Made by a program: the position numbers and the translations under genes. The notes below the pieces were generated by a model. The model did not search any database, was not told the DNA's origin, and saw nothing but the letters and a program-made list of their open reading frames with translations. 64,000 nt of DNA from Duganella sp. Root336D2 (GTDB taxonomy: Bacteria; Pseudomonadota; Gammaproteobacteria; Burkholderiales; Burkholderiaceae_D), in contig NZ_LMDB01000005.1 in NCBI RefSeq assembly GCF_001425005.1, forward strand, positions 1 to 64,000, written 5' to 3'. Shown here one piece after another: positions 2,109 through 47,940 of the stretch; position 1 is the stretch's first letter, and the number at the start of each line of letters is the position of its first letter.

Positions 2109-2813
2109 TTGGACGTCACAAAGATCGCTGCAGAAGGCATGCAGCAAGATCTGCTGCGAATGCAGAGCATCAGCCAGAACATCGCCAATGTTCTCACTCC
2201 AGGTTACAAGCGCCAGATAGCTGCGCAACAGGGATTCTCCGTACAGGTTGAAAAAGGATTGGCGGTGCAGCCGGGGTCCACGATCGATGCGCGCGCCGGT
2301 ACCATGCGCTTCACCGGCTTGCAGACCGATGTTGCAGTCGAGGGCGAAGCATTCTTTGAAGTGGCGACGCCGGATGGCCCGCGCTACACCCGCCAGGGCG
2401 CACTGCGTGTTGACGCAGGTGGCCGCCTGGTTGGCGCCAACAATTTCCCCATCATGGGTTCCAGTGGCGACATCGTGCTCGCCGGCGGGCCTTTTACCGT
2501 CGATTCGTCCGGACAGGTGTTCCAGGACGGGCGCGTCGCCGGTCAGCTGAAGCTTGTGTACTTCCGCGAGGCGCAGCGCCTGGAGCCGGTAGGCTCGGGC
2601 ATGTACGCGCAAGGCGGCGCTTCGCTCGAAACCGCTGCAGCCACCGTGGCTGCGCGGGTGCGCTCCGGCTATCTGGAAAATTCCAACGTCGATAACGCCC
2701 GTGAAATGGTCAGCCTGACTGAGACGGTGCGCCATTTCGAAGCCCTGCACCGCATCTCCCAAGGCTATGACGAGGTCCTTGGCTCAGCAATCAGAAAGCT
2801 CGGAGAGTTTTAA
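2109..2813 (+). CDS. flgF: Flagellar basal-body rod protein FlgF
   Basis: This is a proximal rod subunit exported through the flagellar gate and assembled between FlgC and the distal rod. The 234-residue protein opens with a helix carrying the rod/hook signature (SQNIANVLTPGYKRQ). It has a central GEAFFEV...GPRYTRQGALRVDAGG block shared by FlgE/F/G proteins, and ends with the C-terminal helix (YLENSNVDNAREMVSLTETVRHFE). The start is TTG, with AAAAGG eight bases upstream. It is the first gene of the flagellar operon, three bases before flgG. The length fits the family (about 245). Confidence 0.9.
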   Translation: MDVTKIAAEGMQQDLLRMQSISQNIANVLTPGYKRQIAAQQGFSVQVEKGLAVQPGSTIDARAGTMRFTGLQTDVAVEGEAFFEVATPDGPRYTRQGALRVDAGGRLVGANNFPIMGSSGDIVLAGGPFTVDSSGQVFQDGRVAGQLKLVYFREAQRLEPVGSGMYAQGGASLETAAATVAARVRSGYLENSNVDNAREMVSLTETVRHFEALHRISQGYDEVLGSAIRKLGEF

Positions 2814-2816
2814 GCA

Positions 2817-3593
2817 ATGAATGACGCGCTCTATATCGCTGCAACTGGCATGAACGTGCAACAGCGCAGTGTCGACACCATCGCCAACAACCTGGCGAAC
2901 GTGAATACGCCCGGCTTCAAGAAAGGCCGGGTCAACTTTGAGGATATGGTTTATCGCGCACTTGGCGCGCCGGCGGGGCAGGCGGATGCTGCGCGTCCTG
3001 CATGGCAGGGCAGCGGCGTCGGCATGCTGTCGCTGGTGAAGCAATTCGCCCCCGGCGAGTTGCGCAAGACCGAACAGCCGCTGGACATCGCGATCCAGGG
3101 CGAAGGCTTTTTTGAAGTCAACGCTACGGACGGCACCCCGGCATACAGCCGCGGTGGTTCGCTGATCGTTGACAAGGACGGCTTCCTGTCGACTGCGGAT
3201 GGCCATGTGCTGAAGCCTGGCATCCACGTCGGCCTGGATGCGTTGGAAATCACCGTCAAGCAAGATGGCCGGGTTCTGGTGCGCAACCGTGAGGGCGGCT
3301 CTTCCAACGAAGTCGGCCGGATAGAGCTGGTGCGCTTTGCCGATACCCAGGGCCTGGTCGCCCTTGGCGGCAACCTGTATCGCCCGTCGGCGCAGTCCGG
3401 CGATGCGATCCTGGGACGTGCCGGCGAAGATGGCCTGGGCGGCATTGCACAAGGCTTCCTGGAGTCCTCGAACGTCAAGCTGGTCGAAGAGATGGTGGAC
3501 CTGATGGCGGCGCAGCGCGCCTATGAGAGCAACGTCAAGGTGATCCAGGCTGCCGACGAGATGCTCGCGATGAGCAATAACCTGCGCAAGTAA
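2817..3593 (+). CDS. flgG: Flagellar distal rod protein FlgG
   Basis: Distal rod subunit that passes through the P and L rings. The 258-residue protein has the N-terminal rod signature QRSVDTIANNLANVNTPGFK, a central GEGFFEV...PAYSRGGSLIVDKDG segment, and the C-terminal helix (GFLESSNVKLVEEMVDLMAA followed by QRAYESNVKVIQAADEMLA). All are typical of FlgG. It starts three bases after flgF stops and is followed nine bases on by flgA. The family length is about 260, so it looks intact. Confidence 0.95.
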   Translation: MNDALYIAATGMNVQQRSVDTIANNLANVNTPGFKKGRVNFEDMVYRALGAPAGQADAARPAWQGSGVGMLSLVKQFAPGELRKTEQPLDIAIQGEGFFEVNATDGTPAYSRGGSLIVDKDGFLSTADGHVLKPGIHVGLDALEITVKQDGRVLVRNREGGSSNEVGRIELVRFADTQGLVALGGNLYRPSAQSGDAILGRAGEDGLGGIAQGFLESSNVKLVEEMVDLMAAQRAYESNVKVIQAADEMLAMSNNLRK

Positions 3594-3601
3594 TCGTTGT
3601 C

Positions 3602-4546
3602 ATGCGGTTTTGGGCGGGCTTGCTGTTCCTGCTGGCGGTGAACGCCACGGCCGCCGAGATCGTACTGGAACTGCGCAAGGAAGCGTCGGTGCGCGGCCCG
3701 ATGGTCACGATTGAAGAACTGGTAGTGATGGATGCCAGCCATGCCGCGCTGGCCGCGACGCCTGTCGGCAGGGCGCCGCTGGCCGGGCAGAGCGCTTTGC
3801 GCAGCCGGCAGGAATTGGCCGATGTGCTGGCCCGTCAGCCGGGCTGGCGCGGCAAGCAGGTCGAATGGCGCGGTGCGGAGGCAGTGCGCGTGCGCACCGA
3901 GGCCGTGGCTTTGCCAGGCGAACGGCTGGTGGCGGAGGCGGAGCGTTACCTGCGCGAACATTTCGGCAGCCGCTACGCGAGGCTGGAGGCCGCGCCGGCA
4001 GCGGAAGTGCCGGAAGTCGCTGTTCCTGTAGGCGACCTTGCGCTGCAAGTGCGTCCGCTGCCGAACGCACGCTTGCCCGGGCGCGTCGCGCTGTGGATTG
4101 ATGTTTTGGCCGGCGGTGCGGTGCAGCGCTCCATTGTGGTGCCGATGCGGATCTCGGCCTGGCAGGAAGTGCTGGTGGCGCGAGGGCCTTTGGCCGAAGG
4201 CGCCGGCATCGGCCAGGGCGAGGTGGAAGTAAAGCTGGAGCGCGTCGAGGCCATCGGCGACGAGCCGGCGGAGCCGGATGCGCTGCAGCGGAACGGCCGG
4301 CTGCGGCACGCAGTCAGTGCGGGGCAAGTGCTGTTGCGGAAGGATTTGGCGCCCGCTAACGCTGTATTGCGCGGCGACAGGGTGCGGCTGGTGGCCGGCA
4401 GGCCTGGAATGCAGGTTGAAGTGGGCGCGGTGGCCGAGGCCGATGCGCTGGTAGGACAAACAATCGCGGTCAGGCCGGCAAACGGCGGCGGCGTAGTGAT
4501 GGCGCGGGTGACCGGGCTGGGTGAAGTCAGGCTGGATGAAAGATAA
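3602..4546 (+). CDS. flgA: P-ring assembly chaperone FlgA
   Basis: Periplasmic chaperone needed to polymerise FlgI into the P ring. The 314-residue protein starts with a Sec signal peptide (MRFWAGLLFLLAVNATAAE). The C-terminal third has the SAF-like fold sequence: LRHAVSAGQVLLRKDLAPA, then GDRVRLVAGRPGMQVEV and a C-terminal VRPANGGGVVMARVTGLGEV. It is somewhat longer than many FlgA proteins. It sits directly before flgH and flgI, the ring genes it serves. Confidence 0.88.
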   Translation: MRFWAGLLFLLAVNATAAEIVLELRKEASVRGPMVTIEELVVMDASHAALAATPVGRAPLAGQSALRSRQELADVLARQPGWRGKQVEWRGAEAVRVRTEAVALPGERLVAEAERYLREHFGSRYARLEAAPAAEVPEVAVPVGDLALQVRPLPNARLPGRVALWIDVLAGGAVQRSIVVPMRISAWQEVLVARGPLAEGAGIGQGEVEVKLERVEAIGDEPAEPDALQRNGRLRHAVSAGQVLLRKDLAPANAVLRGDRVRLVAGRPGMQVEVGAVAEADALVGQTIAVRPANGGGVVMARVTGLGEVRLDER

Positions 4547-4552
4547 AGAAGA

Positions 4553-5131
4553 ATGAAGAGCAGGATGTGGAATTGGATGGGGGCGCTGATGCTGGCACAG
4601 GCTGCCGTGGCGCAGGCGACCAGCCTGTATGATCCGGTGGCCTACCAGGCCCTGACTTCCGATTTGCGGCAGCGTAAGGTCGGCGACCTGATCACCGTCA
4701 TGGTCTATGAGAACTCAAGCGCCAGCAGCACCGCGAATACCAGCGCGGGCCGCGAAGCTGGCATCGGCCTCGCCGCACAAGGCACCGGCGGCAAGCGGGT
4801 CGCGGCGTCGGTGCACACCAATAACGATATGGACGGGCGCGGACGCACCGAGCGTGAAGGCCGCGTGCTGGCGCAGCTCACCGTCTCGGTCCGCGAGATC
4901 ACGGAATCGGGCGACCTGATGGTGGCGGGCGAGCAGGTGCTGGAAGTGAACAATGAGCGCCAGCAGATCAAGGTCGAAGGCCGCATCCGTCCGCAAGATG
5001 TGTCGGCGGCCAATGTCGTGCTGTCGACGCGCATCGCCAATGCGCGCATCAGCTATGCGGGCGAGGGCGACCTGGCCGCAATCCAGCGGCCCGCCTGGTG
5101 GCAGCGTTTCCTGACCCTGTTTGGCTTGTAA
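4553..5131 (+). CDS. flgH: Flagellar L-ring protein FlgH, lacking the lipobox Cys
   Basis: Outer-membrane L-ring subunit. The 192-residue protein has a signal-like N-terminus ending AQAAVAQATS. The FlgH core follows: LYDPVAYQALTSDLRQRKVG, DLITVMVYENSSAS, then ANVVLSTRIANARISYAGEG and the terminal WWQRFLTLFGL. FlgH is normally a lipoprotein of about 230 residues with an acylated Cys after the signal peptide. This protein contains no Cys at all and the N-terminal part is short. It could be a non-lipidated variant, or the true start may differ, although no better upstream start overlaps flgA sensibly. It lies six bases after flgA. Confidence 0.9.
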   Translation: MKSRMWNWMGALMLAQAAVAQATSLYDPVAYQALTSDLRQRKVGDLITVMVYENSSASSTANTSAGREAGIGLAAQGTGGKRVAASVHTNNDMDGRGRTEREGRVLAQLTVSVREITESGDLMVAGEQVLEVNNERQQIKVEGRIRPQDVSAANVVLSTRIANARISYAGEGDLAAIQRPAWWQRFLTLFGL

Positions 5132-5136
5132 TCCCT

Positions 5137-6258
5137 ATGCGTCAATTTATTCTGCGCGCCATGCTGGCGCTGGCGGGGCTGTGCGCCTGTGTGCAGGTGC
5201 AGGCCGAAACGATTCGTATCAAGGACCTGGGCAAGGTCTCGGGCTGGCGTGAAAACGCGCTGACCGGCTACGGCCTGGTGACCGGCCTGGCCGGCACCGG
5301 CGATTCCAGCCGCAACAAGGCAACCCGCCAGTCGATCGCCAATATGCTGGCGCGCTTCGACATGACTGTAGTTGCGGAAGATGTGCAGAGCCGCAACGCC
5401 GCTGCCGTCATGGTGACGGCCAGCCTGTCGCCTTTCGCACGGGAAGGCGATACGCTGGACGTGACCGTCACTTCGCTGGGCGATGCGCGCAGCCTGGTGG
5501 GCGGAACGCTGATCCTGGCGCCGCTGAAGGGGCCGGACGGCAAGGTTTATGCGCTGGCGCAAGGAGCGCTGACTGTCGGCGGCTACAAGTACGACATGAA
5601 CGGCAATGTGCAGCAGAAGAACCACCCGACGGTGGCTTCCATTCCAAGCGGTGCGACGGTGGAGCGGGGTGTGGTCAATGACGTGACCCTGCAGGGCAAC
5701 AGCGTCACCTTCGTGCTGTCCGAGCCGGACTACACGACAGCCAGCCGTGTCGCCGCAGCGATCAACCGCGGCCTGGGCGGCAACCTGGCGACGGCGCTCG
5801 ATCCTTCCGGCATCGAAATCAATATCCCGGAAGCGCGCCGCTCGCGCCTGAACGATTTCCTGATGGCCGTCGAAAACGTGTCCGTGGAACCGGACCGCCG
5901 TGCGCGCGTGGTCATCAACGAGCGCACCGGCACCGTGGTGGCGGGCGGCGACGTGCGGATCTCCAAAGTGGCGGTCTCGCACGGCGAGCTGAAAGTGAGC
6001 ATCCTGACCGACAACACCGTGTCGCAGCCGCTCCTGGTCAGCAATACCGGCGCGGGCGTGCGCACCGCGCAGGTGTCGAACAGCCGGGTGGACGTCGAGG
6101 AGCGCGGCGAAACGGGCCTGGTGACTGCCGGCGGCAATACCGTCGCCGACCTGGTGCAGTCGCTCACGCGCGTCAAGACCAATACGCGCGACATCATCTC
6201 GATCTTGCGGGCAGTGAAGGCGGCAGGCGCCTTGCACGCGGAACTGATCGTTCAATAA
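5137..6258 (+). CDS. flgI: Flagellar P-ring protein FlgI
   Basis: P-ring subunit in the periplasm around the rod. The 373-residue protein has a signal peptide (MRQFILRAMLALAGLCACVQ then VQA). The conserved FlgI core is present: IRIKDLGKVSGWRENALTGYGLVTGLAGTGDS, RVVINERTGTVVAGGDVRIS and the C-terminal VADLVQSLTRVKTNTRDIIS block. I chose ATG 5137, five bases after the flgH stop, because it starts the signal peptide; in-frame sequence upstream belongs to flgH. Length is normal for the family. Confidence 0.95.
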   Translation: MRQFILRAMLALAGLCACVQVQAETIRIKDLGKVSGWRENALTGYGLVTGLAGTGDSSRNKATRQSIANMLARFDMTVVAEDVQSRNAAAVMVTASLSPFAREGDTLDVTVTSLGDARSLVGGTLILAPLKGPDGKVYALAQGALTVGGYKYDMNGNVQQKNHPTVASIPSGATVERGVVNDVTLQGNSVTFVLSEPDYTTASRVAAAINRGLGGNLATALDPSGIEINIPEARRSRLNDFLMAVENVSVEPDRRARVVINERTGTVVAGGDVRISKVAVSHGELKVSILTDNTVSQPLLVSNTGAGVRTAQVSNSRVDVEERGETGLVTAGGNTVADLVQSLTRVKTNTRDIISILRAVKAAGALHAELIVQ

Positions 6259-6268
6259 GGACTGGATT

Positions 6269-6631
6269 ATGCAATCGATTATCGAATCGGGCACCGTGGA
6301 CCTGTTGCGGCTGGCGCTGGATGCGTCCATCATGCGCCAGCAGGCCATTGCCCACAATATCGCCAACGCCAATACCCCCGGCTACCAGCGCATGGGCGTC
6401 AGCTTCGAAGCCCAGGTGGCGCAGCTGATGGACCAGCAGAAGGCCGGCACGCCAACGCTGCCGATGGCGGCCTTGCGCCCGGAGTTCGTGTCCATCGGCC
6501 AGGAGCCGGTCTCGCTCGACACGGAAATGGCTTCGCTGGCCGAGAACACCCTCCACCACCAGGCTCTGCTCAAGGCCCTGAGCAAGCAAATGTCGCTGGT
6601 GAGCACAGCGATCAACGAGGGAAAACGCTAA
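6269..6631 (+). CDS. flgB: Flagellar proximal rod protein FlgB
   Basis: Proximal rod subunit. The 120-residue protein has the N-terminal rod signature QQAIAHNIANANTPGYQRMG and a C-terminal helix (LDTEMASLAENTLHHQALLK). Both are characteristic of FlgB (family about 115-140). It begins ten bases after flgI with AAGGACTGGATT upstream and abuts flgC with no gap. In most species flgB and flgC head the flgBCDEFGHIJ operon; here the order is rearranged, with flgB-C after the ring genes. Confidence 0.9.
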   Translation: MQSIIESGTVDLLRLALDASIMRQQAIAHNIANANTPGYQRMGVSFEAQVAQLMDQQKAGTPTLPMAALRPEFVSIGQEPVSLDTEMASLAENTLHHQALLKALSKQMSLVSTAINEGKR

Positions 6632-7066
6632 ATGGACTATCACGCGCTCTTCCAGATCAGCGCCAGCGGCATGGCGCTGGAAAAACTGCGGCTCGATACC
6701 ACCGCCGCCAATATCGCCAATATGAACGTCGCTTACGCACCAGGCGAAGCAGGCTACCGCCCGATGCGCGTGGTGGCGCAAACCGCGCAACTGGGATTCA
6801 GCCAGCAATTCGGCAGCATGTACCGTGCCGTGGGCGGCGTGCAGTCCATGAGCGTGGTGCAGGAGTCGGCGCCGCCGCGCCTGGCGCATGAACCGGGCCA
6901 CCCGCTCGCCAATGCGCAGGGCATGGTTGCCTATCCGGGCGTCAACCACACGCAGGAAATGGTCAATATGACCGCCGCGCTGCGCGCCTATGAGGCGAAC
7001 GTCGCGGCCATGAACGCTGCCAAGACCATGGCGGCGCGGGCACTGGACATCGGAGGCCAGCAATGA
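6632..7066 (+). CDS. flgC: Flagellar proximal rod protein FlgC
   Basis: Proximal rod subunit. The 144-residue protein has the FlgC opening (FQISASGMALEKLRLDTTAA then NIANMNVAYAPGEAGYRP). Its C-terminal helix PGVNHTQEMVNMTAALRAYE then ANVAAMNAAKTMAARALDIG includes the NM(x)6RAYEANV signature. The start codon immediately follows the flgB stop, and its end overlaps fliE by four bases, so the three are translationally coupled. Confidence 0.92.
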   Translation: MDYHALFQISASGMALEKLRLDTTAANIANMNVAYAPGEAGYRPMRVVAQTAQLGFSQQFGSMYRAVGGVQSMSVVQESAPPRLAHEPGHPLANAQGMVAYPGVNHTQEMVNMTAALRAYEANVAAMNAAKTMAARALDIGGQQ

Positions 7067-7368
7067 CTTTGGAAGCGATCGGCGCGATCGGCGCCGTGGA
7101 TGCGCTGGACACAGTGGCGCCGGCAACGGCACAGGCGGCAGCGCCGGAAGGCAGTTTCGGCAGCTGGTTTGCGCAGGAAATGGGCGTGGCCAATACGCGC
7201 GCGGCAGAGGCAGACCTGGCCGTGCGCCAGCTGGCGGCCGGCGAACCGGTCAGCCTGCACGATGTGATGATCAAGCTGGAAGAGGCGAAGCTTTCCTTCC
7301 AGCTGCTGGCCCAGGTGCGCAACCGCGTGCTGGAAGCCTACCAGGAAGTAATGCGTACCCAGGTGTAA
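7063..7368 (+). CDS. fliE: MS-ring/rod junction protein FliE
   Basis: FliE joins the MS ring and export gate to the proximal rod. The 101-residue protein ends with the diagnostic FliE helix (GEPVSLHDVMIKLEEAKLSF then QLLAQVRNRVLEAYQEVMRT). Length is typical (about 104). It overlaps flgC by four bases and directly precedes fliF, the usual fliE-fliF order. Confidence 0.93.
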   Translation: MTLEAIGAIGAVDALDTVAPATAQAAAPEGSFGSWFAQEMGVANTRAAEADLAVRQLAAGEPVSLHDVMIKLEEAKLSFQLLAQVRNRVLEAYQEVMRTQV

Positions 7369-7371
7369 TTG

Positions 7372-8829
7372 ATGACGATGATGCAGATGTGGAGCGGCAT
7401 GGCGCCGCGTGCCCGGACGGGATTGGCGGCGGGCGTGGTGGCGATAGTCGCGCTGGTGGCTGCGCTTGGCTTCTGGGCCTACCGGTCCGACTACCAGGTG
7501 CTGTTCTCCGAAGTAGCGGCGGCTGATGCGGCGGCGATGACGGCCGAACTGGACAAGCAGAAAACGCCTTACCAGCTGGCGGACGGCGGCTCGACCATCC
7601 TGGTCCCGAAGGACCTGGTGTACAAGACGCGCTTGAAGCTGATGGGCAAGGAAATGCCGCTGCACGGGGCGGTGGGATTCGAAGTATTCAATAACGCCGA
7701 CTTCGGCATGACCGAGTTCGTACAGAAGGTGAACTACCAGCGCGCCATCCAGGGCGAACTGACCCGCACCATCCTGTCGATCGAGGAGATCCAGGCCGCG
7801 CGCGTGCACCTGGCCTTGCCTGAACAGGGCCTGTTCCGCAAGAGCGGCACCAAGCCCAAGGCCTCGGTGACGGTCACCATGAAGCAGGGTCACGCGTTGG
7901 CGCCGGAACAGGTGACCGGCATCCAGCGCCTGGTCGCCGCGTCCGTGCCCGATATTGTGGCGGCCGACGTGACGGTACTGAACCAGCAGGGCGTGGCGCT
8001 GACCCGCGTCGCAGCGGAACAAGGTGGCGAGCAATTGTCGATAGCGCAGCTGGACCTCAAGCGCGGTACCGAAGACTACCTGGCGAAAAAAGTCAGCCAG
8101 GTGCTGGACCGTACCTTCGGCGCGGGCGAGGCCGTGGCCAGCGTCGACGTCCTGCTGAACCTCGACCAGACCAAGGTCACGACGGAAGAAGTGCTGCCGG
8201 CCCGTGGCGCAGCAGGGGCGGCAGCCGGCGTCATGGTGCGCGAGCGCCAGACCAGCCGTGAAGGCGCGCCGGCCGTCGCCAGCGGCCAGCCAGCCGGCAG
8301 CGGCAGCACCCTGACCGAAGCCGATTACCAGGTCGGGCGCCGCGTCGAACAACACGTGCCGGGCAGTGGCGCCATCCGCCGCATGACCATTGCGGTCGTG
8401 GTGCGCCAGCCGCTGCGCGCGGAGCAGCAGGAGAAACTGAAGGAAGTGGTGATGGCCGCGACCGGCTTTAGCGCCGCACGCGGCGACGCCGTTGTGGTGC
8501 ATACGATGGAGCAGTTGCTGACGCCGGCGCAGGCGGCGGGCAATGCGGCGCCCGACGCGCAAGGTGCGCTGGCTGGCTCGGCTGCGGCAAGCGCGGCTTC
8601 GCGCGCCTCGGCCGAAGCTGCCGCGGCCACCGGTTCCGTGCCGTGGGCCTTGACCGCCGTCCTTGCAGTGATCGTGGCGGCCGTCGCTGTCGCCTATGCA
8701 CTGCGGGCGGGCCGCAGGCAGGCGCCGGCTGCGCGCCTGGATCCGGCCACGCGCCAGTTGCTGCTGCAGGATATCCGCAGCTGGATCGCGGCGCCTGCCA
8801 CTGCGGTGGCGAAGGAGCACAAGCCATGA
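7372..8829 (+). CDS. fliF: Flagellar MS-ring protein FliF
   Basis: Inner-membrane MS-ring subunit. The 485-residue protein has a first transmembrane helix at about residues 15-35 and the ring-building motifs (LFSEV, AVGFEVFNNADFGMTEFVQK, NYQRAIQGELTRTI, ARVHLALPEQGLFRK). A second transmembrane helix lies at about 425-445 (WALTAVLAVIVAAVAVAYAL). The cytoplasmic tail after it is only about 40 residues; enteric FliF has a tail roughly twice as long that binds FliG. The last helix RQLLLQDIRSWIAAP still resembles a FliG-binding helix. I use ATG 7372; a TTG precedes it by one codon. The gene overlaps the next by four bases. Confidence 0.94.
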   Translation: MTMMQMWSGMAPRARTGLAAGVVAIVALVAALGFWAYRSDYQVLFSEVAAADAAAMTAELDKQKTPYQLADGGSTILVPKDLVYKTRLKLMGKEMPLHGAVGFEVFNNADFGMTEFVQKVNYQRAIQGELTRTILSIEEIQAARVHLALPEQGLFRKSGTKPKASVTVTMKQGHALAPEQVTGIQRLVAASVPDIVAADVTVLNQQGVALTRVAAEQGGEQLSIAQLDLKRGTEDYLAKKVSQVLDRTFGAGEAVASVDVLLNLDQTKVTTEEVLPARGAAGAAAGVMVRERQTSREGAPAVASGQPAGSGSTLTEADYQVGRRVEQHVPGSGAIRRMTIAVVVRQPLRAEQQEKLKEVVMAATGFSAARGDAVVVHTMEQLLTPAQAAGNAAPDAQGALAGSAAASAASRASAEAAAATGSVPWALTAVLAVIVAAVAVAYALRAGRRQAPAARLDPATRQLLLQDIRSWIAAPATAVAKEHKP

Positions 8830-9326
8830 GTGGACATCGCCAGGCGGCGGCCGTCCTGCACGGATTGGCCGCGGAAGACCGCGACCTGATCCTGGCGGAA
8901 TTGCCGGCCACGGACCAGGCGGCCCTGCAGGCCTACCTGCAGGAGTTGCGCGAGCTGGGCTTCGAGGGCGGCCCGGATGCGGTGGCGCCAGTGGCGCCGG
9001 CGGCCGGCAATCCGCGCGACGTGCTGGCGCGTGCCGGCCTGGTTCCGGTGCAGGCCCTGCTGGCCGCGGAACCTGCATCGCTGGTGGGCCAGTTGCTGGC
9101 GCTGGGCCCCTGGTCCTGGGCCGATGAATTGCTGGCGCAAATGCCGGCGGCGCGGCGCGAGGCGGTGCAAGCCGCCGCTGCGCAGCGGCCGGCGCCGGCG
9201 CTCGCGCGCTTCCTGCTGGAAGATGCCGCGCGCCGCCTGGCCGACAGCGTGCCTGCCGCGCCTGCCCCGGGCCGCCGAGGCCTGCTGAAACCATTACTGC
9301 GCCTGGTGCGGCCATGGACCCGATAA
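8826..9326 (+). CDS. Short FliG-like protein without the torque domain
   Basis: It sits in the fliG position between fliF and fliH but encodes only 166 residues; FliG is about 330. Residues 4-45 (QAAAVLHGLAAEDRDLILAE followed by LPATDQAALQAYLQEL) resemble the FliG N-terminal domain. Residues 64-115 (VQALLAAEPASLVGQLLALG then a DELLAQMPAARREAV helix) resemble the armadillo-like middle domain. It then ends in a basic tail with no C-terminal domain, the part that carries the charged torque residues contacting MotA. Family assignment rests on position and helix pattern. If it is FliG-derived, it could form a static ring under FliF but not drive rotation. Confidence 0.65.
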   Translation: MSGHRQAAAVLHGLAAEDRDLILAELPATDQAALQAYLQELRELGFEGGPDAVAPVAPAAGNPRDVLARAGLVPVQALLAAEPASLVGQLLALGPWSWADELLAQMPAARREAVQAAAAQRPAPALARFLLEDAARRLADSVPAAPAPGRRGLLKPLLRLVRPWTR

Positions 9327-13239: not shown

Positions 13240-13254
13240 AACAAGGGAGATTCC

Positions 13255-16607: not shown

Positions 16608-16615
16608 AACCGATC

Positions 16616-17362
16616 ATGGCTGCCGCCTTGCTTGCCTGTGAACCGGATGCCGGCGCCGCCCTGTGGCAGCGCTTCTGGGGCAGCCGCGACCCGGCGCTGC
16701 GGCAGCAACTGGTCGAGCGCTATCTTGAGTACGCACGCATCATGGCAGCCCGCCTGTTCAGCATGCGCGCCCATGCCGGCCTGGAGTTCGGCGATTTCCT
16801 GCAGTTCGCGCGCGAAGGCCTGCTGCAGGCGGTTGACCGTTTTGAGGCAGGGCATGGCGCCAAGTTCGAGACATTTGCCGCTGCGCGCATCAACGGCGCT
16901 ATACTCGACGGCATAAGGTCGTACAGCGACGCGCAGGAGCAGGCGGCGGCCCGCAAGCGCATCCTGGCGGCGCGTTCGGCTGACCTGGCGCCAGCCGGCG
17001 CAGCGCCGGCCGACCCGGACGCGCTCTTCGGCCAACTGGCCGAAATGGCGGTGGGCCTGGCGGTGGGATTCGTGCTCGACGATTCGGGCATGTATCTTGC
17101 CGACGAGCCAGGCTACCCCGACAATGCCTACGCCGGCATTGAAATGCGCCAGCTCAGGCAGCGCATCCATGCCTTGCTGCACCAGCTGACGGAACGCCAG
17201 CGGCAGGTGCTGCATTACCACTACCTCCAGCAGCTGCCGTTCGAAGAGATCGCCAATATGCTGGGCTTGAGCAGGGGGCGCATTTCCCAGCTGCACAAGG
17301 AAGCTTTGGACGCCCTGCGCAAGCGCATGCTGCAGGACGACCCCGTTAACCTGATATTTTGA
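16616..17362 (+). CDS. fliA: Flagellar sigma factor FliA (sigma-28 type)
   Basis: A 248-residue sigma-70-family protein. Region 2 includes YLEYARIMAARLF, FGDFLQFAREGLLQAVDRFE and FETFAAARINGAILDGIRSY. Region 4 is LTERQRQVLHYHYLQQLPFE then EIANMLGLSRGRISQLHKEA. In flagellar systems FliA transcribes late genes (flagellin, motor, chemotaxis) and is held off by FlgM. None of those late genes, nor flgM, is in this window, so its targets here are unclear. I chose ATG 16616, eight bases after fliP, as the start of region 1.2-like sequence. Confidence 0.9.
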   Translation: MAAALLACEPDAGAALWQRFWGSRDPALRQQLVERYLEYARIMAARLFSMRAHAGLEFGDFLQFAREGLLQAVDRFEAGHGAKFETFAAARINGAILDGIRSYSDAQEQAAARKRILAARSADLAPAGAAPADPDALFGQLAEMAVGLAVGFVLDDSGMYLADEPGYPDNAYAGIEMRQLRQRIHALLHQLTERQRQVLHYHYLQQLPFEEIANMLGLSRGRISQLHKEALDALRKRMLQDDPVNLIF

Positions 17363-17374
17363 TTGGACGCATAG

Positions 17375-17971
17375 ATGAGCAATTCGATCCTCGCCGGGCT
17401 TGACCAGGCCGAACTGTTACAACTGGCACTCAAGGCCGGCGCCGGGAATGAGGCGGGCAGTGCCATTGCCTACTTGAAGGAAGCCGTGGGGCGCCCCGAT
17501 GCGACCGCCCAGGCCCATTACCTGCTGGGGGCGGAATACGCCCAGCTGGGCATGTACGACCGGGCCGCCGGCGAAATGGAAGCGGCGATTGCCCTTGACC
17601 AGACGCTGTACACTGCGCGCCTGCAGCTGGCCTTGCTCTGGCTCGGCGCCAGCCAGGCCGAGCGCGCGGCCGGCGTGCTGCGCCCCCTCGAGGAAAGCGG
17701 CGTGCCGGCCGAGCTGCAGCACTTCGGCCACGGCCTGCTGTTGCTGATTGCCGATGACCTGGCCGGGGCACGTACGGCGCTGGCGCAAGGGATTGAGCTG
17801 AATCATGCCAATCCGCCGCTGAACGACGACATGCAGCGCATCATCGGCGAGCTGGACAGCCGGATCGCCGCCGCAGGCGCGGCAGCGCCGGCGGACAGTA
17901 CCGGCGCCGAGGCGGACGGCGACGGCCAGCACTTGCTGCTGTCGGCTTATGCCGGCAACTTCAAGCACTAA
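17375..17971 (+). CDS. TPR-like protein in the flagellar operon
   Basis: A 198-residue soluble protein made of helical pairs of TPR type: YLKEAVGRPDATAQAHYLLG, AEYAQLGMYDRAAGEMEAAI, ALLWLGASQAERAAGVLRPL and ADDLAGARTALAQGIELNHA. It has no signal peptide. It lies between fliA and fliQ and is 12 bases downstream of fliA, so it belongs to the operon. Flagellar loci do not usually carry TPR genes here. TPR proteins in type III systems are often export chaperones or assembly scaffolds, which would be a reasonable role, but there is no direct evidence. Confidence 0.75.
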   Translation: MSNSILAGLDQAELLQLALKAGAGNEAGSAIAYLKEAVGRPDATAQAHYLLGAEYAQLGMYDRAAGEMEAAIALDQTLYTARLQLALLWLGASQAERAAGVLRPLEESGVPAELQHFGHGLLLLIADDLAGARTALAQGIELNHANPPLNDDMQRIIGELDSRIAAAGAAAPADSTGAEADGDGQHLLLSAYAGNFKH

Positions 17972-17974
17972 AGC

Positions 17975-18337
17975 ATGACTTCGATCAGCCCGGTCACCCA
18001 GCTCGTTGCGGCCATCCGCAGCCAGCTCGACCGCGCGGCGCCGGCGCGCCGGCGCCGGCCGGGCGCGGCGGCGGCATCGCGCCAGGCGGCGGAAGGGCTG
18101 ACCAGCCTGATCGAACTGCGTGTCGCCCACATTGCTGAAGACGATCCCCAGCGCGGCCGCAAGGCGTTCCGGGTCTTCCTGGAAGCGGTGCTGCTGGCGC
18201 ATTTTGGCACCAAAGTCGCCAATGATGCCCGCTTCCACCAGATGCTGGACGACATCCAGCAGGCCATGGAAAGCGACCCGGCCAGCGGCCAGCTGGTAGA
18301 ACAGGCGATTGCCCACTTGCTGGCGCGCCAGTCCTGA
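17975..18337 (+). CDS. Small helical protein of unknown function, flagellar operon
   Basis: A 120-residue protein with a basic Ala/Arg-rich N-terminal third and a helical C-terminal part (LTSLIELRVAHIAEDDPQRG, RKAFRVFLEAVLLAHFGTKV, FHQMLDDIQQAMESDPASGQ). No signal peptide or membrane segment. I do not recognise a family. It starts three bases after the TPR gene and is followed 19 bases later by a second TPR gene. The size and position would suit a secretion chaperone or a substrate, as an inference only. Confidence 0.65.
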   Translation: MTSISPVTQLVAAIRSQLDRAAPARRRRPGAAAASRQAAEGLTSLIELRVAHIAEDDPQRGRKAFRVFLEAVLLAHFGTKVANDARFHQMLDDIQQAMESDPASGQLVEQAIAHLLARQS

Positions 18338-18356
18338 CTCACTAACGAAAGACACT

Positions 18357-19499
18357 ATGCAGCATCAAGAAACGCCCCCACTCGAACGCCTGGCCCGGCA
18401 CGAAGCCTACCTGGCTAGCGATCCCGACAACCTGTCCCTGCTGCAGACGGTGGTTGAGCTGTGCTTCGCGGCCGGGCTGCCGCAGCGCGCGGAAACCCAT
18501 GTGCGCGCCGCGCTCGAACGCCATGCGGGCGAGCCGGGTCTGCTCGCGATGTTGGGCAACACGCTGCTGGCGCAGCAGCAATGGGAGCCGGCCGCCGAGT
18601 TGTTCGGCGGACTGCTGGGAAGGTTCGCCGATGGCGGCCTGGCCTACAATTTTGCGCTGGCCTGCCTGTTCCTGGGCCGCTGGCAAGAGGGCTGGCACGC
18701 GCTGGCGCCGTATGTCGAAGGTGAGGGCGCCAGCCCGGCGCCGGGCGCGGTCACCATCGCCTTGCGCCTGCTGCACCGGCTGGGCGACCTGGACAAGGCA
18801 AGCGCCCTGGTGCAGCGCTACCGCGACGCGTTCAGCCAGGCGCCTGCCTTCCTGGGCGCGGCCAGTGCCGTGTGCCTGGACGACGGCGACCTGGAGCAAG
18901 CCGAAGCCCTCAGCACGGCCTCGCTGGCCTGCGGCCGCAACGTCGAGGCGCTGGTGGTGGCCGGCTCGGTCGCCCTGGCCCGTACCGACAACGACGCCGC
19001 CGTCCCGCTGTTCGAGGAAGCGCTGGCTTCCAGCGCGACCGAGGCGCGCGCCTGGGCCGGCCTGGGCATGGCCAGCATGCTGCGCCGCGACCTGAAGAGC
19101 GCGCAGCAGCAGCTGGAAAAGGCGGTGCACTTCATGCCGGGCCATATCGGTACCTGGCACCTGCTGGCCTGGGCCCGCCTGTACAGCAACGACCTGGCCG
19201 GCGCGACTGCCGCCTTCGAAACGGCGCTGGGCCTGGACCGCAATTTCGGCGAGAGCCACGGCGGCATGGCGGTGGTGCAGGCCATGGCCGGCAAGCGTGC
19301 CGAGGCCGAGGCCAGCATTGCGCGCGCCCTCGGCCTGGACCGCGACAACCTGTCGGCGCGCTACGCCCAGATGGCGCTCGATGGCGACCTGCAGGATCCG
19401 GCGCGCTTCCACGCCCTGGCCATGCGCCTGTTGTCCATGCGCGAAGGCACGTTCGGCCGCAGCATGGGCGATATCGTGCAGTCTTACCAGAGCCGCTGA
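18357..19499 (+). CDS. TPR-repeat protein in the flagellar operon
   Basis: A 380-residue protein built almost entirely of TPR units, for example LLQTVVELCFAAGLPQRAET, WEPAAELFGGLLGRFADGGL, ARAWAGLGMASMLRRDLKSA and WARLYSNDLAGATAAFETAL. No signal peptide. ATG 18357 follows the ribosome-site-like AACGAAAGACACT; the longer in-frame extension upstream overlaps the previous gene. It ends two bases before fliQ, so it is tightly linked to the export-gate genes. It resembles TPR scaffold proteins generally and no specific family can be named. Confidence 0.75.
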   Translation: MQHQETPPLERLARHEAYLASDPDNLSLLQTVVELCFAAGLPQRAETHVRAALERHAGEPGLLAMLGNTLLAQQQWEPAAELFGGLLGRFADGGLAYNFALACLFLGRWQEGWHALAPYVEGEGASPAPGAVTIALRLLHRLGDLDKASALVQRYRDAFSQAPAFLGAASAVCLDDGDLEQAEALSTASLACGRNVEALVVAGSVALARTDNDAAVPLFEEALASSATEARAWAGLGMASMLRRDLKSAQQQLEKAVHFMPGHIGTWHLLAWARLYSNDLAGATAAFETALGLDRNFGESHGGMAVVQAMAGKRAEAEASIARALGLDRDNLSARYAQMALDGDLQDPARFHALAMRLLSMREGTFGRSMGDIVQSYQSR

Positions 19500-19501
19500 A
19501 C

Positions 19502-19768
19502 ATGGGTGCCGATTCCGCGCTCCAGATGCTGGCCGAACTGCTGTGGAACGGGCTGCTGATTACCGCCCCTTTGCTGGCGGTGACGCTGGTGGTCGGCCTG
19601 CTGATCAGCATCCTGCAGGTGGTCACGCAGGTGCAGGAAGCGTCGCTGACCTTCATCCCCAAGATCATCGCCGCCGTGGTGGTGCTGGTGGTGTGCGGGC
19701 CGTGGATGCTGAAGCGCCTGGTCGGCTATGCCACCGGCTTGATTGCCTCGATTCCGCAGCATTTCTGA
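19502..19768 (+). CDS. fliQ: Flagellar export gate protein FliQ
   Basis: Small two-helix export gate subunit of 88 residues: LLWNGLLITAPLLAVTLVVG then LLISILQVVTQVQEASLTFI, and a second helix VVVLVVCGPWMLKRLVGYAT. The QVVTQVQEASLTFIPKI motif is diagnostic. ATG 19502 follows the TPR gene by two bases. Normal length (about 89). Confidence 0.94.
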   Translation: MGADSALQMLAELLWNGLLITAPLLAVTLVVGLLISILQVVTQVQEASLTFIPKIIAAVVVLVVCGPWMLKRLVGYATGLIASIPQHF

Positions 19769-19774
19769 TCTGGC

Positions 19775-20539
19775 ATGACCCTGAACATCGACATCGCCTG
19801 GCTGCTGGCCGTGTTCTATACCACGCTGCGTCTCGGCGCCGTGCTGCTGATGTCGCCCATCATGTCGGGGCTGGGCGGGCTGCTGCTGGTGCGCGTGTTC
19901 CTGGTACTGGGCTTGTCTGTCATGCTGGTCAACAGCCTGGACCTGCCGCTGCCGGCGCACGGCCTGGAGCTGGGGCCGATGATTGCGGGCGCGCTGCTGG
20001 AGCTGGCGCTGGGCATCACCCTGGCGTTCGGCGTGCACGCGGGATTTGCCTCCTTCACCCTGGCCGGCAAGGTGCTGGACATCCAGAGCGGCCTGGGCAT
20101 GGGGTCGGTCTACGACCCGGTCACGCGCAGCAGCGCGCCGCTGTTCGGCACCATGCTGAATATGGTGGCGGTGGTGGTGTTCTTCGCGCTGGATGGCCAC
20201 CATGCTTTCGTGCGCGGGCTGGCCTATTCGCTGCAGCAGGTCGCGCCCGGCAGCGGCCTGGCCGCGCTGCCGGCCGAGGCCGTGGTGCGCCAGTTCGGGC
20301 TGATGTTCTCGCTGGCCGTATCGCTGGTGATCCCGGTGATGCTGGCCCTGCTGCTGGCGGAAGCGGCACTGGCGATGGTGTCGCGGGTGCTGCCGCAAAT
20401 AAATATGTTCGTGATCGGGGTGCCGGTCAAGATCGTGGTGTCCATCGTGGTATTGATGCTGACGGCCGGCAGCCTGGGACCGGCAATGGGACGCGTGTAC
20501 AGCGGCATTTTCAGGTATTGGGAACAGGTGTTGGGTTAA
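19775..20539 (+). CDS. fliR: Flagellar export gate protein FliR
   Basis: A 254-residue multi-spanning export-gate subunit with FliR features: LRLGAVLLMSPIMSGLGGLL, ITLAFGVHAGFASFTLAGKV, LDIQSGLGMGSVYDP and the C-terminal LPQINMFVIGVPVKIVVSIV motif. It lies between fliQ and flhB with no gap to the latter. Complete in length (about 260). Confidence 0.94.
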   Translation: MTLNIDIAWLLAVFYTTLRLGAVLLMSPIMSGLGGLLLVRVFLVLGLSVMLVNSLDLPLPAHGLELGPMIAGALLELALGITLAFGVHAGFASFTLAGKVLDIQSGLGMGSVYDPVTRSSAPLFGTMLNMVAVVVFFALDGHHAFVRGLAYSLQQVAPGSGLAALPAEAVVRQFGLMFSLAVSLVIPVMLALLLAEAALAMVSRVLPQINMFVIGVPVKIVVSIVVLMLTAGSLGPAMGRVYSGIFRYWEQVLG

Positions 20540-21625
20540 ATGGCAGAACAAGATTCCGACCTGACAGAACAGGCGACACAGTACAAGCTGGAGCAGGCGC
20601 GCAAGAAGGGCTCGGTCGCCCGCAGTGCTGATTTCACGGCGGCAGCGATGATGGCGGCCCTGGTGCTGATGTTCCATGCCTATGGCGGCGCCGCCTTGCG
20701 CGAAGCGGCTAGGCTGCAGCAGCAGATGCTGGCCCACGCCCAGGCGCTTGACTGGCGCAGCGAAGCGATGGCGGCCTGGCTGGGCCAACTGCTGGTGGCG
20801 ATGCTGGCGATCCTGGGGCCGTTGTTCCTGGCGCTGATTGTCGTGGCGGTGCTGGCCAACCTGGTGCAGACCGGCCCCGTGTTCAGTTTCCATCCGCTGT
20901 CGCCGGACATGAACCGCCTGAATCCCGCGCAAGGCTTCAAGAAGATCATGTCGAAACGCACCCTTTTCGAGGCGGGCAAATCGATCGTGAAGCTGGTGGT
21001 GCTGTGCGCCGTGGCTTACTACATTGTGCGCGACATGATTCCCGGCCTGGCCAGCTTGCCGGCGCTGGAAGCCAAAGGCTATGTGCATACGCTGCTGGGG
21101 CTGTGCGGCTCGCTGCTGGCGAAAATGCTGGCTGCGCTGATTGTCATCGCCATGCTCGACTTCGGGTTCACGCGCTGGGAGTTCAGCCAGCGCATGCGCA
21201 TGAGCAAGCGCGACGTGAAGGACGAACACAAGAACAGGGAAGGCGATCCACGCATCCGTGGCCGCTTGCGCGACCTGCGCAAGGAAATGCTGAAGCGCAG
21301 CCAGTCCGCGGCCAAGGTCTCACAGGCGGACGTGCTGATTACCAACCCGACCCATTTGGCCGTGGCGCTCAGCTACCAGCATGGCGTCTCCGGCGCACCG
21401 CAAGTGGTGGCCAAAGGGGCCGGCGAGCTGGCGGCGCGCATGCGCGAACTGGCCGGCCGCAATGGTATTCCCGTGGTACAGAACCGGCCGCTGGCGCGGG
21501 CACTGTTCCGCGAAGTCGGCCATGACGGCTATGTGCCGGAAAAATGGTACCCGCAAATTGCCCGCATCATGGTGTGGGTGTATACGATGCGCGAGGCAAA
21601 GCGCAATTCTGGAAAGGCAAGATGA
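20540..21625 (+). CDS. flhB: Flagellar export switch protein FlhB
   Basis: Inner-membrane substrate-specificity switch of 361 residues. The N-terminus EQATQYKLEQARKKGSVARS is followed by four transmembrane helices, the linker MSKRDVKDEHKNREGDPRIR, and the self-cleaving site ITNPTHLAVALSY with an intact NPTH. It starts immediately after the fliR stop and overlaps flhA by four bases. With fliK present, a normal hook-type specificity switch is possible, even though no filament gene is present here. Confidence 0.95.
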   Translation: MAEQDSDLTEQATQYKLEQARKKGSVARSADFTAAAMMAALVLMFHAYGGAALREAARLQQQMLAHAQALDWRSEAMAAWLGQLLVAMLAILGPLFLALIVVAVLANLVQTGPVFSFHPLSPDMNRLNPAQGFKKIMSKRTLFEAGKSIVKLVVLCAVAYYIVRDMIPGLASLPALEAKGYVHTLLGLCGSLLAKMLAALIVIAMLDFGFTRWEFSQRMRMSKRDVKDEHKNREGDPRIRGRLRDLRKEMLKRSQSAAKVSQADVLITNPTHLAVALSYQHGVSGAPQVVAKGAGELAARMRELAGRNGIPVVQNRPLARALFREVGHDGYVPEKWYPQIARIMVWVYTMREAKRNSGKAR

Positions 21626-23676
21626 TGTTGGCGTTGCAAAAGGTGTTCAAGAACCACACCGATATGGTGCTGGTACTGCTGGTGGTCGGCATCCTGACCG
21701 TGCTGTTCGTGCCGATTCCCTCTGGCCTGCTGGACTTCCTGATCCTGTCGAACGTCAGCTTTGCCATGCTGATCCTGCTGCTGACGTTCTACATCGGGCG
21801 GCCGGTCGAGTTCTCGACTTTCCCGTCGCTGCTGCTGATCGCTACGCTGTTCCGCCTGTCGCTGAATGTGGCGGCCACGCGCCTGATCCTGTCCGAGGCC
21901 GACGCCGGCCGTGTCATTTCGGCCATCGGCTCCTACGTGGTGGGCGGCAATTACGTGATCGGCATGATCGTGTTCCTGATCCTGGTGGTAGTGCAGTACG
22001 TGGTGGTGACCAATGGCGCCCAGCGCGTGTCCGAGGTGGCCGCGCGCTTCACCCTGGACAGCATGCCTGGCCAGCAAATGAGTATTGACGCCGACTTGAA
22101 CATGGGCTTCATCGACCAGGAGGAAGCCAAGCAGCGCCGCAAGATGCTGGAAAAGGAATCCGGCTTCTACGGCGCCATGGACGGCGCCAGCAAGTTCGTG
22201 AAGGGCGATGCGATCGCCGGCATCATCATCATGCTGATCAATATCGTGGGCGGCCTGGTGATTGGCGTCATGCAGATGGGGATGCGCTGGGACCAGGCGC
22301 TGCAAACCTTTACCCTGCTGACGGTGGGCGACGGCATCGTGACCCAGGTGCCGGCGCTGGTGATTGCGGTGGGCACCGGTATCATCGTGACCCGCTCCGC
22401 CTCGGACGGCAGCTTGAGCGGCGAGGTGCTGAAGCAGATGACCGCCTTTTCCAAGCCGATGTTCATTGTGGCGGCAGCGCTGTCGGTGCTGCTGTTCCTG
22501 CCCGGGATTCCGTCCGTGCCGGTGCTGTTGCTGGTGACGCTGCTGGCCGGCGTCGGCTGGCTGATGCGCCGCAAATCCGCCGGCAACGGGACTTCGGATG
22601 AAGACAGCGCCGACAGCTCGGCTGGCGAAGGGAAGGATGGCGAGACCGGCTACGACCTGCTGCGCGTGGAACCGTTCGAGGTGCACGTTGGCGCCGCCCT
22701 GGCGCCGCTGGTGCGTGGCGAGCAGACTGTCTTCATGGAACGCATCGCTGCGATCCGCAAGCAGTACGCCCTGGAGTCGGGCATGGTGCTGCCGAGCGTG
22801 CGCTTCCGGGACAGCGCGCAGCTTGGCGCCAATGCCTATGAGCTGCAAGTGTTCGGGGTTCCGGCCGGGCGCGGTGAAATCATGATGGAGCGCACCCTGG
22901 CGATCCGTGCCAGCGCCGAAGCGCGCCCGGTCAAAGGGATTGAAACGCGCGAGCCGACCTACGGGCTGCCGGCGGTGTGGATCGAAGAAGCTGAAAAGGA
23001 CATCGCCCGCGCTGCGCGCTATACGCTGGTCGATGCCACCACGGTCTTCATCACCCATTTGAGCGAGGTCCTGAAGCAGCAGTCGGCAACCTTGCTGACC
23101 CGGACGGAGACCGACAGGCTTCTGCAGCGCGTGCGCCAGGACCAGCCTGGCCTGGTGGAAGAACTGGTGCCGACCGTGCTGTCCATCGGCGACGTGCAGA
23201 AAGTGCTGCAAAACCTGCTGCGCGAAAAGGTCTCGATCCGTAACCTGGAGCTGATCCTCGAAACGCTGGTCGATGCCGGCCGCAATTCGAAAGACCTGGG
23301 CTACCTGACCGAAGCAGTGCGGCAGAAACTGGGCCCGGCGATCTGCCAGGGCCTGATCGGCGACCACGCCTCGCTCAGCGTATTGACCCTGGATGCCGGC
23401 ATCGAACAAGTGCTGATGGACAGCGTGCGGACGGCCGACAGCGGCAGCGCGCTGGTAGTGGAACCGCGCTATGCGGAGCAGCTCCTGTCGCGCCTTGCCG
23501 CGCAATCGGAGCGCATGATGAAGGGGAATATGCTGCCCGTGCTGCTTTGCTCGCCGGACCTGAGGCGCCATATCCGCGCCCTGGCTGAACGCGCGGTGCC
23601 GCATATGCGCGTGCTCTCGATGGCCGAGATCCCGGGCAGCGTCAACCTGAAGGCTTACGCCACCGTCACGCTGTAA
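21622..23676 (+). CDS. flhA: Flagellar export gate protein FlhA
   Basis: Large export-gate subunit of 684 residues. The membrane half has about eight helices with VEFSTFPSLLLIATLFRLSL then NVAATRLIL, the FHIPEP-type cytoplasmic-loop region, and GDGIVTQVPALVIAVGTGII. The cytoplasmic half binds chaperone-substrate complexes and includes VEPFEVHVGAALAPLV and NLELILETLVDAGRNSKDLG. ATG 21622 overlaps flhB by four bases. It is the last gene of the flagellar locus and meets a converging gene remnant. Confidence 0.96.
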   Translation: MMLALQKVFKNHTDMVLVLLVVGILTVLFVPIPSGLLDFLILSNVSFAMLILLLTFYIGRPVEFSTFPSLLLIATLFRLSLNVAATRLILSEADAGRVISAIGSYVVGGNYVIGMIVFLILVVVQYVVVTNGAQRVSEVAARFTLDSMPGQQMSIDADLNMGFIDQEEAKQRRKMLEKESGFYGAMDGASKFVKGDAIAGIIIMLINIVGGLVIGVMQMGMRWDQALQTFTLLTVGDGIVTQVPALVIAVGTGIIVTRSASDGSLSGEVLKQMTAFSKPMFIVAAALSVLLFLPGIPSVPVLLLVTLLAGVGWLMRRKSAGNGTSDEDSADSSAGEGKDGETGYDLLRVEPFEVHVGAALAPLVRGEQTVFMERIAAIRKQYALESGMVLPSVRFRDSAQLGANAYELQVFGVPAGRGEIMMERTLAIRASAEARPVKGIETREPTYGLPAVWIEEAEKDIARAARYTLVDATTVFITHLSEVLKQQSATLLTRTETDRLLQRVRQDQPGLVEELVPTVLSIGDVQKVLQNLLREKVSIRNLELILETLVDAGRNSKDLGYLTEAVRQKLGPAICQGLIGDHASLSVLTLDAGIEQVLMDSVRTADSGSALVVEPRYAEQLLSRLAAQSERMMKGNMLPVLLCSPDLRRHIRALAERAVPHMRVLSMAEIPGSVNLKAYATVTL

Positions 23677-47922: not shown

Positions 47923-47940
47923 GTGCCAGGAGACGCCGAT

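What the first reader, a model, noticed from the sequence alone, without database searches (positions are those of the whole stretch)
2109..23676. Complete hook-basal-body locus with no filament, motor or chemotaxis genes
Seen: 25 core structural, export and regulatory genes packed on one strand, including FlgA-I, FliE-F, FliH-K, FlgD-E, FliM-P, FliA, FliQ-R and FlhB-A. There is no FliC, FliD, FliS, FlgK, FlgL, FlgJ, FlgM, FlgN, MotA/B, FliL, FlhF/G or Che gene. Both edges are closed by mobile or decayed DNA, so the set looks self-contained. Known: hook-basal bodies without filaments can export proteins (Buchnera is the classic case). Inference: this is a flagellum-derived secretion device rather than a swimming organelle.
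Basis: partly seen in the sequence, partly recalled or inferred. Interest (0 to 1): 0.88.

Follow-up and report, generated by a model that had tools for sequence, protein, structure and literature searches.

The report
Propeller-less flagellum exporting giant RHS proteins
A Massilia-like bacterium with two other flagellar gene sets carries a third flagellum base that lacks the filament genes and the torque part of its rotor, and this base likely works as a pump for giant RHS-repeat proteins, whose genes were found in nearly every sampled genome that has the base.

Summary
Window 2109-23676 is one strand of open flagellar rod, ring, hook and export genes with no filament, stator or chemotaxis gene. 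The genome has two further flagellar sets and an injectisome, so this is an extra system.

Its FlhA belongs to one clade (28 rows, 100/100), found in 43 of 392 family genomes. All 43 also carry a protein start (MVAIVSGN..., no obvious Sec signal) that heads giant RHS-repeat proteins (up to 15,898 aa), against 10 of 349 genomes without the clade. In 24 of 43 it lies within 25 kb of flhA (0.85 expected). Of 39 RHS upstream stretches, 19 share a sigma28-like promoter, also seen before TPR genes of the machine. In this window the locus is edged by RHS remnants; two intact RHS genes lie elsewhere in the genome, each with a perfect promoter.

Best reading: a flagellum-derived, non-rotary secretion machine with its own sigma factor and giant RHS cargo. 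Export is inferred, not shown. Eight searches of an open-access library found no report of it.

The parts
2109..2813 (+). FlgF-like proximal rod protein
   Evidence: NCBIfam flgF 1.1e-43, under cut-off; Flg_bbr_C
2817..3593 (+). FlgG distal rod
   Evidence: TIGR02488 4.6e-84 over cut-off
3602..4546 (+). FlgA P-ring chaperone
   Evidence: TIGR03170 4.5e-21 over cut-off
4553..5131 (+). FlgH L-ring
   Evidence: 2.2e-41, under cut-off
5098..6258 (+). FlgI P-ring (start uncertain)
   Evidence: NF003676 9e-118 over cut-off
6269..6631 (+). FlgB rod
   Evidence: TIGR01396 1.2e-20 over cut-off
6632..7066 (+). FlgC rod
   Evidence: TIGR01395 7.5e-35 over cut-off
7063..7368 (+). FliE
   Evidence: TIGR00205 6.3e-23 over cut-off
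7369..8829 (+). FliF MS-ring
   Evidence: TIGR00206 3.3e-68 over cut-off; both YscJ_FliF domains
8826..9326 (+). FliG-like protein of 166 aa: predicted N and middle domains, no torque (C) domain
9314..10177 (+). FliH
   Evidence: 1.8e-15, under cut-off
10174..11487 (+). FliI export ATPase (start uncertain)
   Evidence: 5.7e-167
11484..11945 (+). FliJ
   Evidence: 5.6e-9, under cut-off
11909..12835 (+). FliK-position protein (hook-length ruler by position only)
   Evidence: no family match; conserved C-terminus in relatives
12835..13239 (+). FlgD hook cap
   Evidence: 5.2e-26, under cut-off; PF03963
13255..14427 (+). FlgE hook
   Evidence: FlgEFG 3e-69 over cut-off; flgE models to 2.2e-59
14424..15206 (+). 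FliM/SctQ-like C-ring protein; only the FliMN_C domain recognised
   Evidence: 1.1e-8, PF01052
15203..15547 (+). FliN
   Evidence: TIGR02480 1.8e-24 over cut-off
15459..16607 (+). FliP (start uncertain)
   Evidence: TIGR01103 2.1e-79 over cut-off
16604..17362 (+). FliA-like sigma factor (divergent)
   Evidence: FliA_WhiG 1.2e-29, under cut-off; regions 2 and 4
17375..17971 (+). T1: TPR protein; likely cargo partner or chaperone
   Evidence: weak TPR match; 13-row alignment; PDB TPR matches; sigma28-like promoter before its kin in L015 and L046
17975..18337 (+). T2: conserved 120-aa helical protein, no kin found
   Evidence: 14-row alignment; no match
18309..19499 (+). T3: TPR protein (start uncertain)
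   Evidence: TPR_19 5.4e-17
19499..19768 (+). FliQ
   Evidence: TIGR01402 3.2e-25, just under cut-off
19775..20539 (+). FliR
   Evidence: 9.1e-44, under cut-off
20540..21625 (+). FlhB
   Evidence: 3.7e-102, under both FlhB and SctU cut-offs
21544..23676 (+). FlhA (start uncertain)
   Evidence: TIGR01398 786 bits, over cut-off 772; SctV model under its cut-off; own clade 100/100
24334..24660 (+). decayed piece of a giant RHS gene at the right edge
   Evidence: 44% over 91 aa to an RHS protein beside a relative's locus, E 1.8e-18
782..1720 (+). probable RHS C-terminal remnants at the left edge (two DAFGNA-type motifs, near 782 and 1641)
   Evidence: same motif near the C-terminus of RHS giants of G001, G006 and G007; short DNA match to the stretch behind own RHS gene 1; no strong protein match

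Best explanation
The locus encodes a hook-basal body without filament or stator genes and with a FliG cut down to what is predicted to be its two inner domains, and it likely works as a non-rotary export machine whose main cargo would be giant RHS/YD-repeat proteins that share one N-terminus. Shown by sequence: the gene set, the missing torque domain, the separate FlhA clade, the co-occurrence and neighbourhood with the RHS family, and a promoter shared by RHS genes and TPR genes. Inferred: FliF to FlhA form the export gate, rod, rings and hook form the conduit through both membranes, and FliH/I/J feed it. The N-terminus of the RHS proteins would be the export signal and T1/T3 would be cargo partners. 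The locus's own FliA-like sigma factor would switch on the cargo late, as sigma28 does for flagellin. The variable C-termini of the RHS proteins suggest toxins or recognition tips (untested).
For: Family matches. Own genome has four FHIPEP proteins and two further flagellar sets; in 19 of 19 genomes no flagellin, FliD_C or FliG_C match lies on the contig that holds the locus. FliG-like protein. FlhA tree: 28 rows on one side of a branch, 100/100. FlhA search is bimodal: 43 of 392 genomes at 60% identity or more, next best about 42%. RHS N-terminus family: 43 of 43 with the clade against 10 of 349 without (Fisher 4e-48); among the own-genus genomes listed, 10 of 10 against 2 of 45. Without the 8 sampled genomes whose rows built the N-terminus model it is 35 of 35. 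Order sample: 12 of 15 (one weak partial) against 2 of 384. Neighbourhood: 24 of 43 within 25 kb of flhA, 0.85 expected, at most 6 in 20,000 simulations. Promoter: 19 of 39 upstream stretches, 0.02 expected per shuffled set, 0 in 330,000 own-genome positions; both own RHS genes 16 of 16; before T1 kin in L015 and L046.
Confidence: 0.74

Rival explanations
1. A decaying third flagellum: the locus is a relic of a flagellum that lost its filament and has no present function.
For: Both edges carry decayed or mobile DNA; no regulon promoter found in the window; own cargo genes are unlinked.
Against: All genes in open frames; most of the set recurs in 13 extended loci of relatives, in two permuted orders, within one FlhA clade over several families; the FliG-like protein keeps a short form (158-256 aa) in all 15 rows aligned; both own RHS genes keep a perfect promoter.
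Confidence: 0.1
2. A working flagellum whose filament, cap and stators are borrowed from the other two sets.
For: The genome has flagellin, FliD and MotA1 genes, and an orphan FliD-like gene on C2.
Against: No FliG torque domain; no FlgK or FlgL among the locus frames; divergent FlgE (30% over 429 and 40% over 121 residues to the own hooks); G055 and G058 hold the RHS family with no FlhA match at all, so that family is not tied to swimming.
Confidence: 0.05
3. The machine exports something else, and the giant RHS genes merely travel with it, for example as tenants of a shared mobile region.
For: RHS genes without the machine in 4 genomes; 11 of 43 genomes with RHS on another contig only.
Against: Unlinked copies still co-occur (43 of 43), and the two unlinked own copies carry the same promoter; kin of the machine's TPR gene T1 share that promoter in two relatives.
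Confidence: 0.11

Closest known systems
Hook-basal bodies of Buchnera
   Same: Flagellar genes reduced to the basal body, proposed as protein exporters (cited so in PMC3459982, section 13).
   Different: Buchnera's is its only flagellar set, in a shrunken endosymbiont genome (recalled). Here it is an extra system in a large genome, with its own FliA-like factor, a truncated FliG and a candidate cargo.
The two other flagellar sets of the same genome (C12 and C1)
   Same: Homologous rod, rings, hook and export gate.
   Different: Those have flagellin, FliG_C and FliD; FlhA is 36-40% identical.
Non-flagellar T3SS (injectisome), e.g. the one at window 54-64 kb
   Same: Export gate and ATPase; non-motile secretion use.
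   Different: The locus keeps FlgB/C/F/G, FlgH/I, FlgD/E and a flagellar-type FlhA, and falls on the flagellar side of the tree. No secretin or needle match among the frames scanned.
Myxococcales basal NF-T3SS ('Myxo')
   Same: Flagellum-derived, lacks motility parts and was argued to translocate protein (PMC3459982 abstract and passages).
   Different: That group sits at the root of the NF-T3SS and lost SctF; here rod, rings and hook are kept.
RHS polymorphic toxins (T6SS-, Sec- or Tc-linked)
   Same: RHS/YD repeats with C-termini that differ between species.
   Different: Often much larger, with a shared N-terminus tied to a flagellar machine. I saw no such link in the passages of PMC3482391.

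Membership tests
Flagellar hook-basal body | Rod (FlgB/C/F/G, FliE), P and L rings (FlgI/H), hook (FlgE, FlgD), MS-ring (FliF) | tested here: met
   FlgF, FlgH and FlgD match but stay under NCBIfam cut-offs
Flagellar hook-basal body | Flagellar export gate (FlhA, FlhB, FliP, FliQ, FliR) and FliH/I/J | tested here: met
   FlhA and FliP over cut-offs; FlhB, FliI, FliH, FliJ, FliQ and FliR match but stay under the flagellar cut-offs
Motile flagellum | Filament (flagellin, FliD) encoded with the set | tested here: not met
   no Flagellin_N or FliD_C match on the locus contig in 19 of 19 genomes
Motile flagellum | FliG C-terminal torque domain | tested here: not met
   FliG_C only on other contigs in 18 of 19 genomes and nowhere in the 19th, G009; slot protein ends after the second domain
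Motile flagellum | MotA/MotB stator in the locus | tested here: not met
   no MotA1 match within 40 kb of flhA in 8 of 8 genomes searched; MotB not searched by itself
Non-flagellar T3SS | SctV-type gate, needle (SctF), secretin (SctC) | tested here: not met
   SctV and SctU models under cut-off; FlhA outside the SctV group; no needle or secretin match among the frames scanned
FliG family (slot protein) | FliG_N plus FliG_M fold | tested here: met
RHS/YD-repeat proteins (cargo) | RHS repeats | tested here: met
   PF05593 6.9e-146 and 6.9e-158 in the two own proteins
RHS polymorphic toxins (cargo) | Recognisable C-terminal toxin domain with immunity gene | tested here: inconclusive
   0 of 7 C-termini match a Pfam family over its cut-off; C-termini differ, 2 similar pairs among 7; immunity genes not tested
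Flagellar type III substrate | N-terminal segment sufficient for export by the machine | not testable with these tools
   needs an experiment

The most novel reading that the evidence does not exclude
A third, previously unnamed branch of flagellum-derived secretion: a non-rotary hook-basal body with a torque-less FliG, its own sigma28-type regulon and TPR partners, which exports single RHS proteins of 4,000 to 16,000 residues, the largest type III cargo known, as antibacterial or recognition devices; RHS giants have taken the place that flagellin holds in a flagellum.
Probability: 0.5. Interest if true: 0.95.

Novelty: new variant of a known kind. Interest (0 to 1): 0.87.

Why it matters
Injectisomes are held to stem from one change of use of the flagellum, with a few reduced cases such as Buchnera whose cargo is not established (PMC3459982; the last part recalled). 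This locus would be an independent case, living beside flagellar sets, kept in many species, and with a named candidate cargo, promoter and regulator. It would show how a rotary organelle sheds its motor and gains a cargo, and how megadalton RHS proteins without an obvious Sec signal leave the cell. Each step can be tested by single gene deletions.

Tried and rejected
Rejected: a second injectisome (gate and tree are flagellar); a set whose filament lies elsewhere as the only copy; chance neighbourhood of RHS genes. The orphan FliD-like gene on C2 has no counterpart in several genomes with the locus, so I did not make it the cap.

Led nowhere: T2 matched nothing convincing by sequence or fold (absence in such lists does not exclude a family). 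C-termini of the RHS proteins matched no Pfam family over its cut-off. The canonical sigma28 consensus was only slightly enriched before RHS genes (mean 10.6 against 9.9 of 16); the k-mer count of the same call then gave the altered motif. The C1 flagellin gene showed no clear site of either kind (best 10 of 16). The promoter profile also hit places with no clear link (L012, L013, L014, L026, L053, and own C33 in L072). A first FlhA tree held truncated rows and was replaced. Four of the seven 'lateral' labels were my guess from search scores and fell with the SctV group. No whole-protein signal-peptide predictor was run; 'no obvious Sec signal' is by eye.

Counts: rows left out were weak or second partial matches (G172 5721952; G205 59296; G214 78606; G312 4506792; G327 19802 and 25532; G329 241698) and all rows of genomes without the clade; 79 rows were used. 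Of the 24 neighbours within 25 kb, three frames are under 200 aa (G084, G252, G276). MotA1 was searched in 8 of the 19 genomes only. G009 has no FliG_C or FliD match anywhere. One search scored at most 2 candidates per genome and left 2 genomes unlisted, so the genus count (55) could be short by up to 2; re-searched 11 discordant genomes in full and found one 101-residue piece of the clade, in G068.

Papers: PMC3459982 passages and section 13; PMC3482391 and PMC13063649 passages; others as search listings with the start of the abstract. Not found in print: searches, open-access library only.
Full report
WHAT IS THERE. Window 2109-23676 holds 27 open frames on one strand. NCBIfam and Pfam name rod, ring, hook, MS-ring, C-ring and export genes plus a FliA-like sigma factor. 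Many scores lie under the curated cut-offs, so the set is divergent; FlhA is over the flagellar cut-off and under the injectisome one. The 'FliK' rests on position and conserved C-terminus only. Three more frames, T1 and T3 (TPR proteins) and T2 (unknown), lie between FliA and FliQ.

NOT THE ONLY FLAGELLUM. The genome (6.58 Mb, 39 contigs, 100% complete) has four FHIPEP proteins: C12 and C1 with flagellar sets including flagellin, FliG_C and FliD, this locus, and an injectisome in the same window. In 19 genomes with the locus none has a flagellin, FliD_C or FliG_C match on the locus contig. MotA1 was searched in 8 of them; matches lie more than 40 kb from flhA or on other contigs.

A CLADE OF ITS OWN. 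A scan of named genomes gave 27 loci in Oxalobacteraceae, Chitinibacteraceae, Neisseriaceae, Burkholderiaceae and unplaced Burkholderiales. Gene order is conserved but permuted between two groups. Thirteen extended loci hold most of the set; T1-T3 and some small genes were not found in every one. In a tree of 49 FlhA/SctV proteins the 28 locus proteins form one side of a branch with 100/100 support, together with flagellar FlhA and apart from SctV. In 392 family genomes, 43 have an FlhA of this clade (60-100% identity, 857 bits or more); the next best matches are near 42% and 543 bits.

THE NEIGHBOURS. Around the locus in relatives lie giant frames with RHS repeats. They share an N-terminus with no obvious Sec signal, MVAIVSGNxLGLLN..., then GNLxLQ..D. 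Of 79 such frames in clade genomes the median is 5,430 aa and the longest 15,898. The own genome has two, on C36, about 5,470 and 6,398 aa, with many RHS repeats, a DUF6531-like start and in one a LysM domain. In the window a clear RHS piece remains on the right and short RHS-like motifs on the left.

CO-OCCURRENCE. With a 61-position model of that N-terminus, 53 of 392 genomes match: 43 of 43 with the FlhA clade and 10 of 349 without (Fisher 4e-48). Eight of the 43 gave rows to the model; without them it is 35 of 35. In 3 of the 43 only frames under 200 aa were found (G084, G252, G276; in G252 at contig ends). Within the own genus it is 10 of 10 against 2 of 45 of the genomes listed. Of the 10, one holds a 101-residue piece of the clade at a contig end (G068), one is a 20-position match (G234), three are short frames of 147-657 aa (G103, G265, G382), two are assemblies of 400-790 contigs (G033, G041), and three are real exceptions (G055, G058, G369). 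In 399 genomes of the order, 15 have the clade and 12 of them match (one weakly), against 2 of 384 (G103, G657); two of these genomes with the clade, G000 and G042, are in both samples. These tests ignore shared descent; the patchy spread within genera softens but does not remove that objection. In 24 of 43 genomes an RHS frame comes within 25 kb of flhA; 0.85 is expected and 6 was the most in 20,000 simulations. In 8 it is on the same contig farther away and in 11 on another contig.

A SHARED PROMOTER. Of 39 distinct upstream stretches, 19 hold NTAAAC-N16-GGATA, 18 of them 82-126 bp before the start codon; shuffled sets give 0.02 and 330,000 own-genome positions give none. Four more score 19 bits or better, one of them from G055, which lacks the clade. 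Both own RHS genes show TAAACTTT-N11-CTGGATAC, 16 of 16, while the C12 flagellin gene shows a site nearer the canonical one, TAAAGTTC-N11-GCCGTTTA, 13 of 16. The geometry is that of sigma28 promoters (TAAAGTTT-N11-GCCGATAA, recalled). In L015 the T1 start codon follows 53 bases, and fliQ 303 bases, behind the start of such a motif; in L046 a T1-like gene follows at 79 bases with a T3-like gene behind it. The simplest reading is that the locus's divergent FliA reads this altered site and makes RHS proteins and TPR proteins late genes; no call shows that this sigma factor binds it. The window itself has no such site (best 14 bits at an unrelated place).

HOW IT LIKELY WORKS. Inferred: the basal body assembles as in a flagellum, the FliG-like protein and FliM/FliN hold the sorting ring but make no torque, the hook is the end of the conduit, and the RHS chains are threaded out N-terminus first with T1/T3 as partners. 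The C-termini differ between species (2 similar pairs among 7) and match no Pfam family over its cut-off, an arrangement like that of polymorphic toxins, but toxicity is untested.

WHAT IS KNOWN. Abby and Rocha (PMC3459982, section 13) note reduced Buchnera basal bodies as proposed secretion systems and flagella-like loci in species not thought to have flagella, and hold that injectisomes arose once. The passages that I saw of the polymorphic toxin survey (PMC3482391) name no flagellum-exported RHS protein. Eight literature searches found no report of this system in their listings; the library is open-access only.

VERDICT. The step still missing is any experiment on export.

Noticed in passing
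window 54189-63727: A non-flagellar T3SS in the same window: SctV, YscD-like, ATPase, SctQ, SctR and SctU by Pfam; it reaches close to the end of the window and starts about 30 kb from the hook-basal-body locus.
   Followed up: partly
G000:C2:25602-26174 (L052): An orphan FliD-like gene (frame of 439 aa) away from both flagella; similar third FliD genes occur in several but not all genomes with the locus.
   Followed up: no
window 47923-50465: Two methyltransferase genes with the 'methyltransferase regulatory domain' in tandem, just before the T3SS region.
   Followed up: no
window 23655-24437 (- strand): A glycosyltransferase group 1 frame directly behind flhA; a 420-aa frame in the same place in L006 clusters with it.
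   Followed up: partly
window 17975-18337: T2, a conserved helical 120-aa protein behind the sigma factor and T1, without kin found; it could be an anti-sigma factor or chaperone (guess).
   Followed up: partly
G131:C5:162263: An RHS frame of 15,898 residues beside the locus, the longest seen.
   Followed up: no
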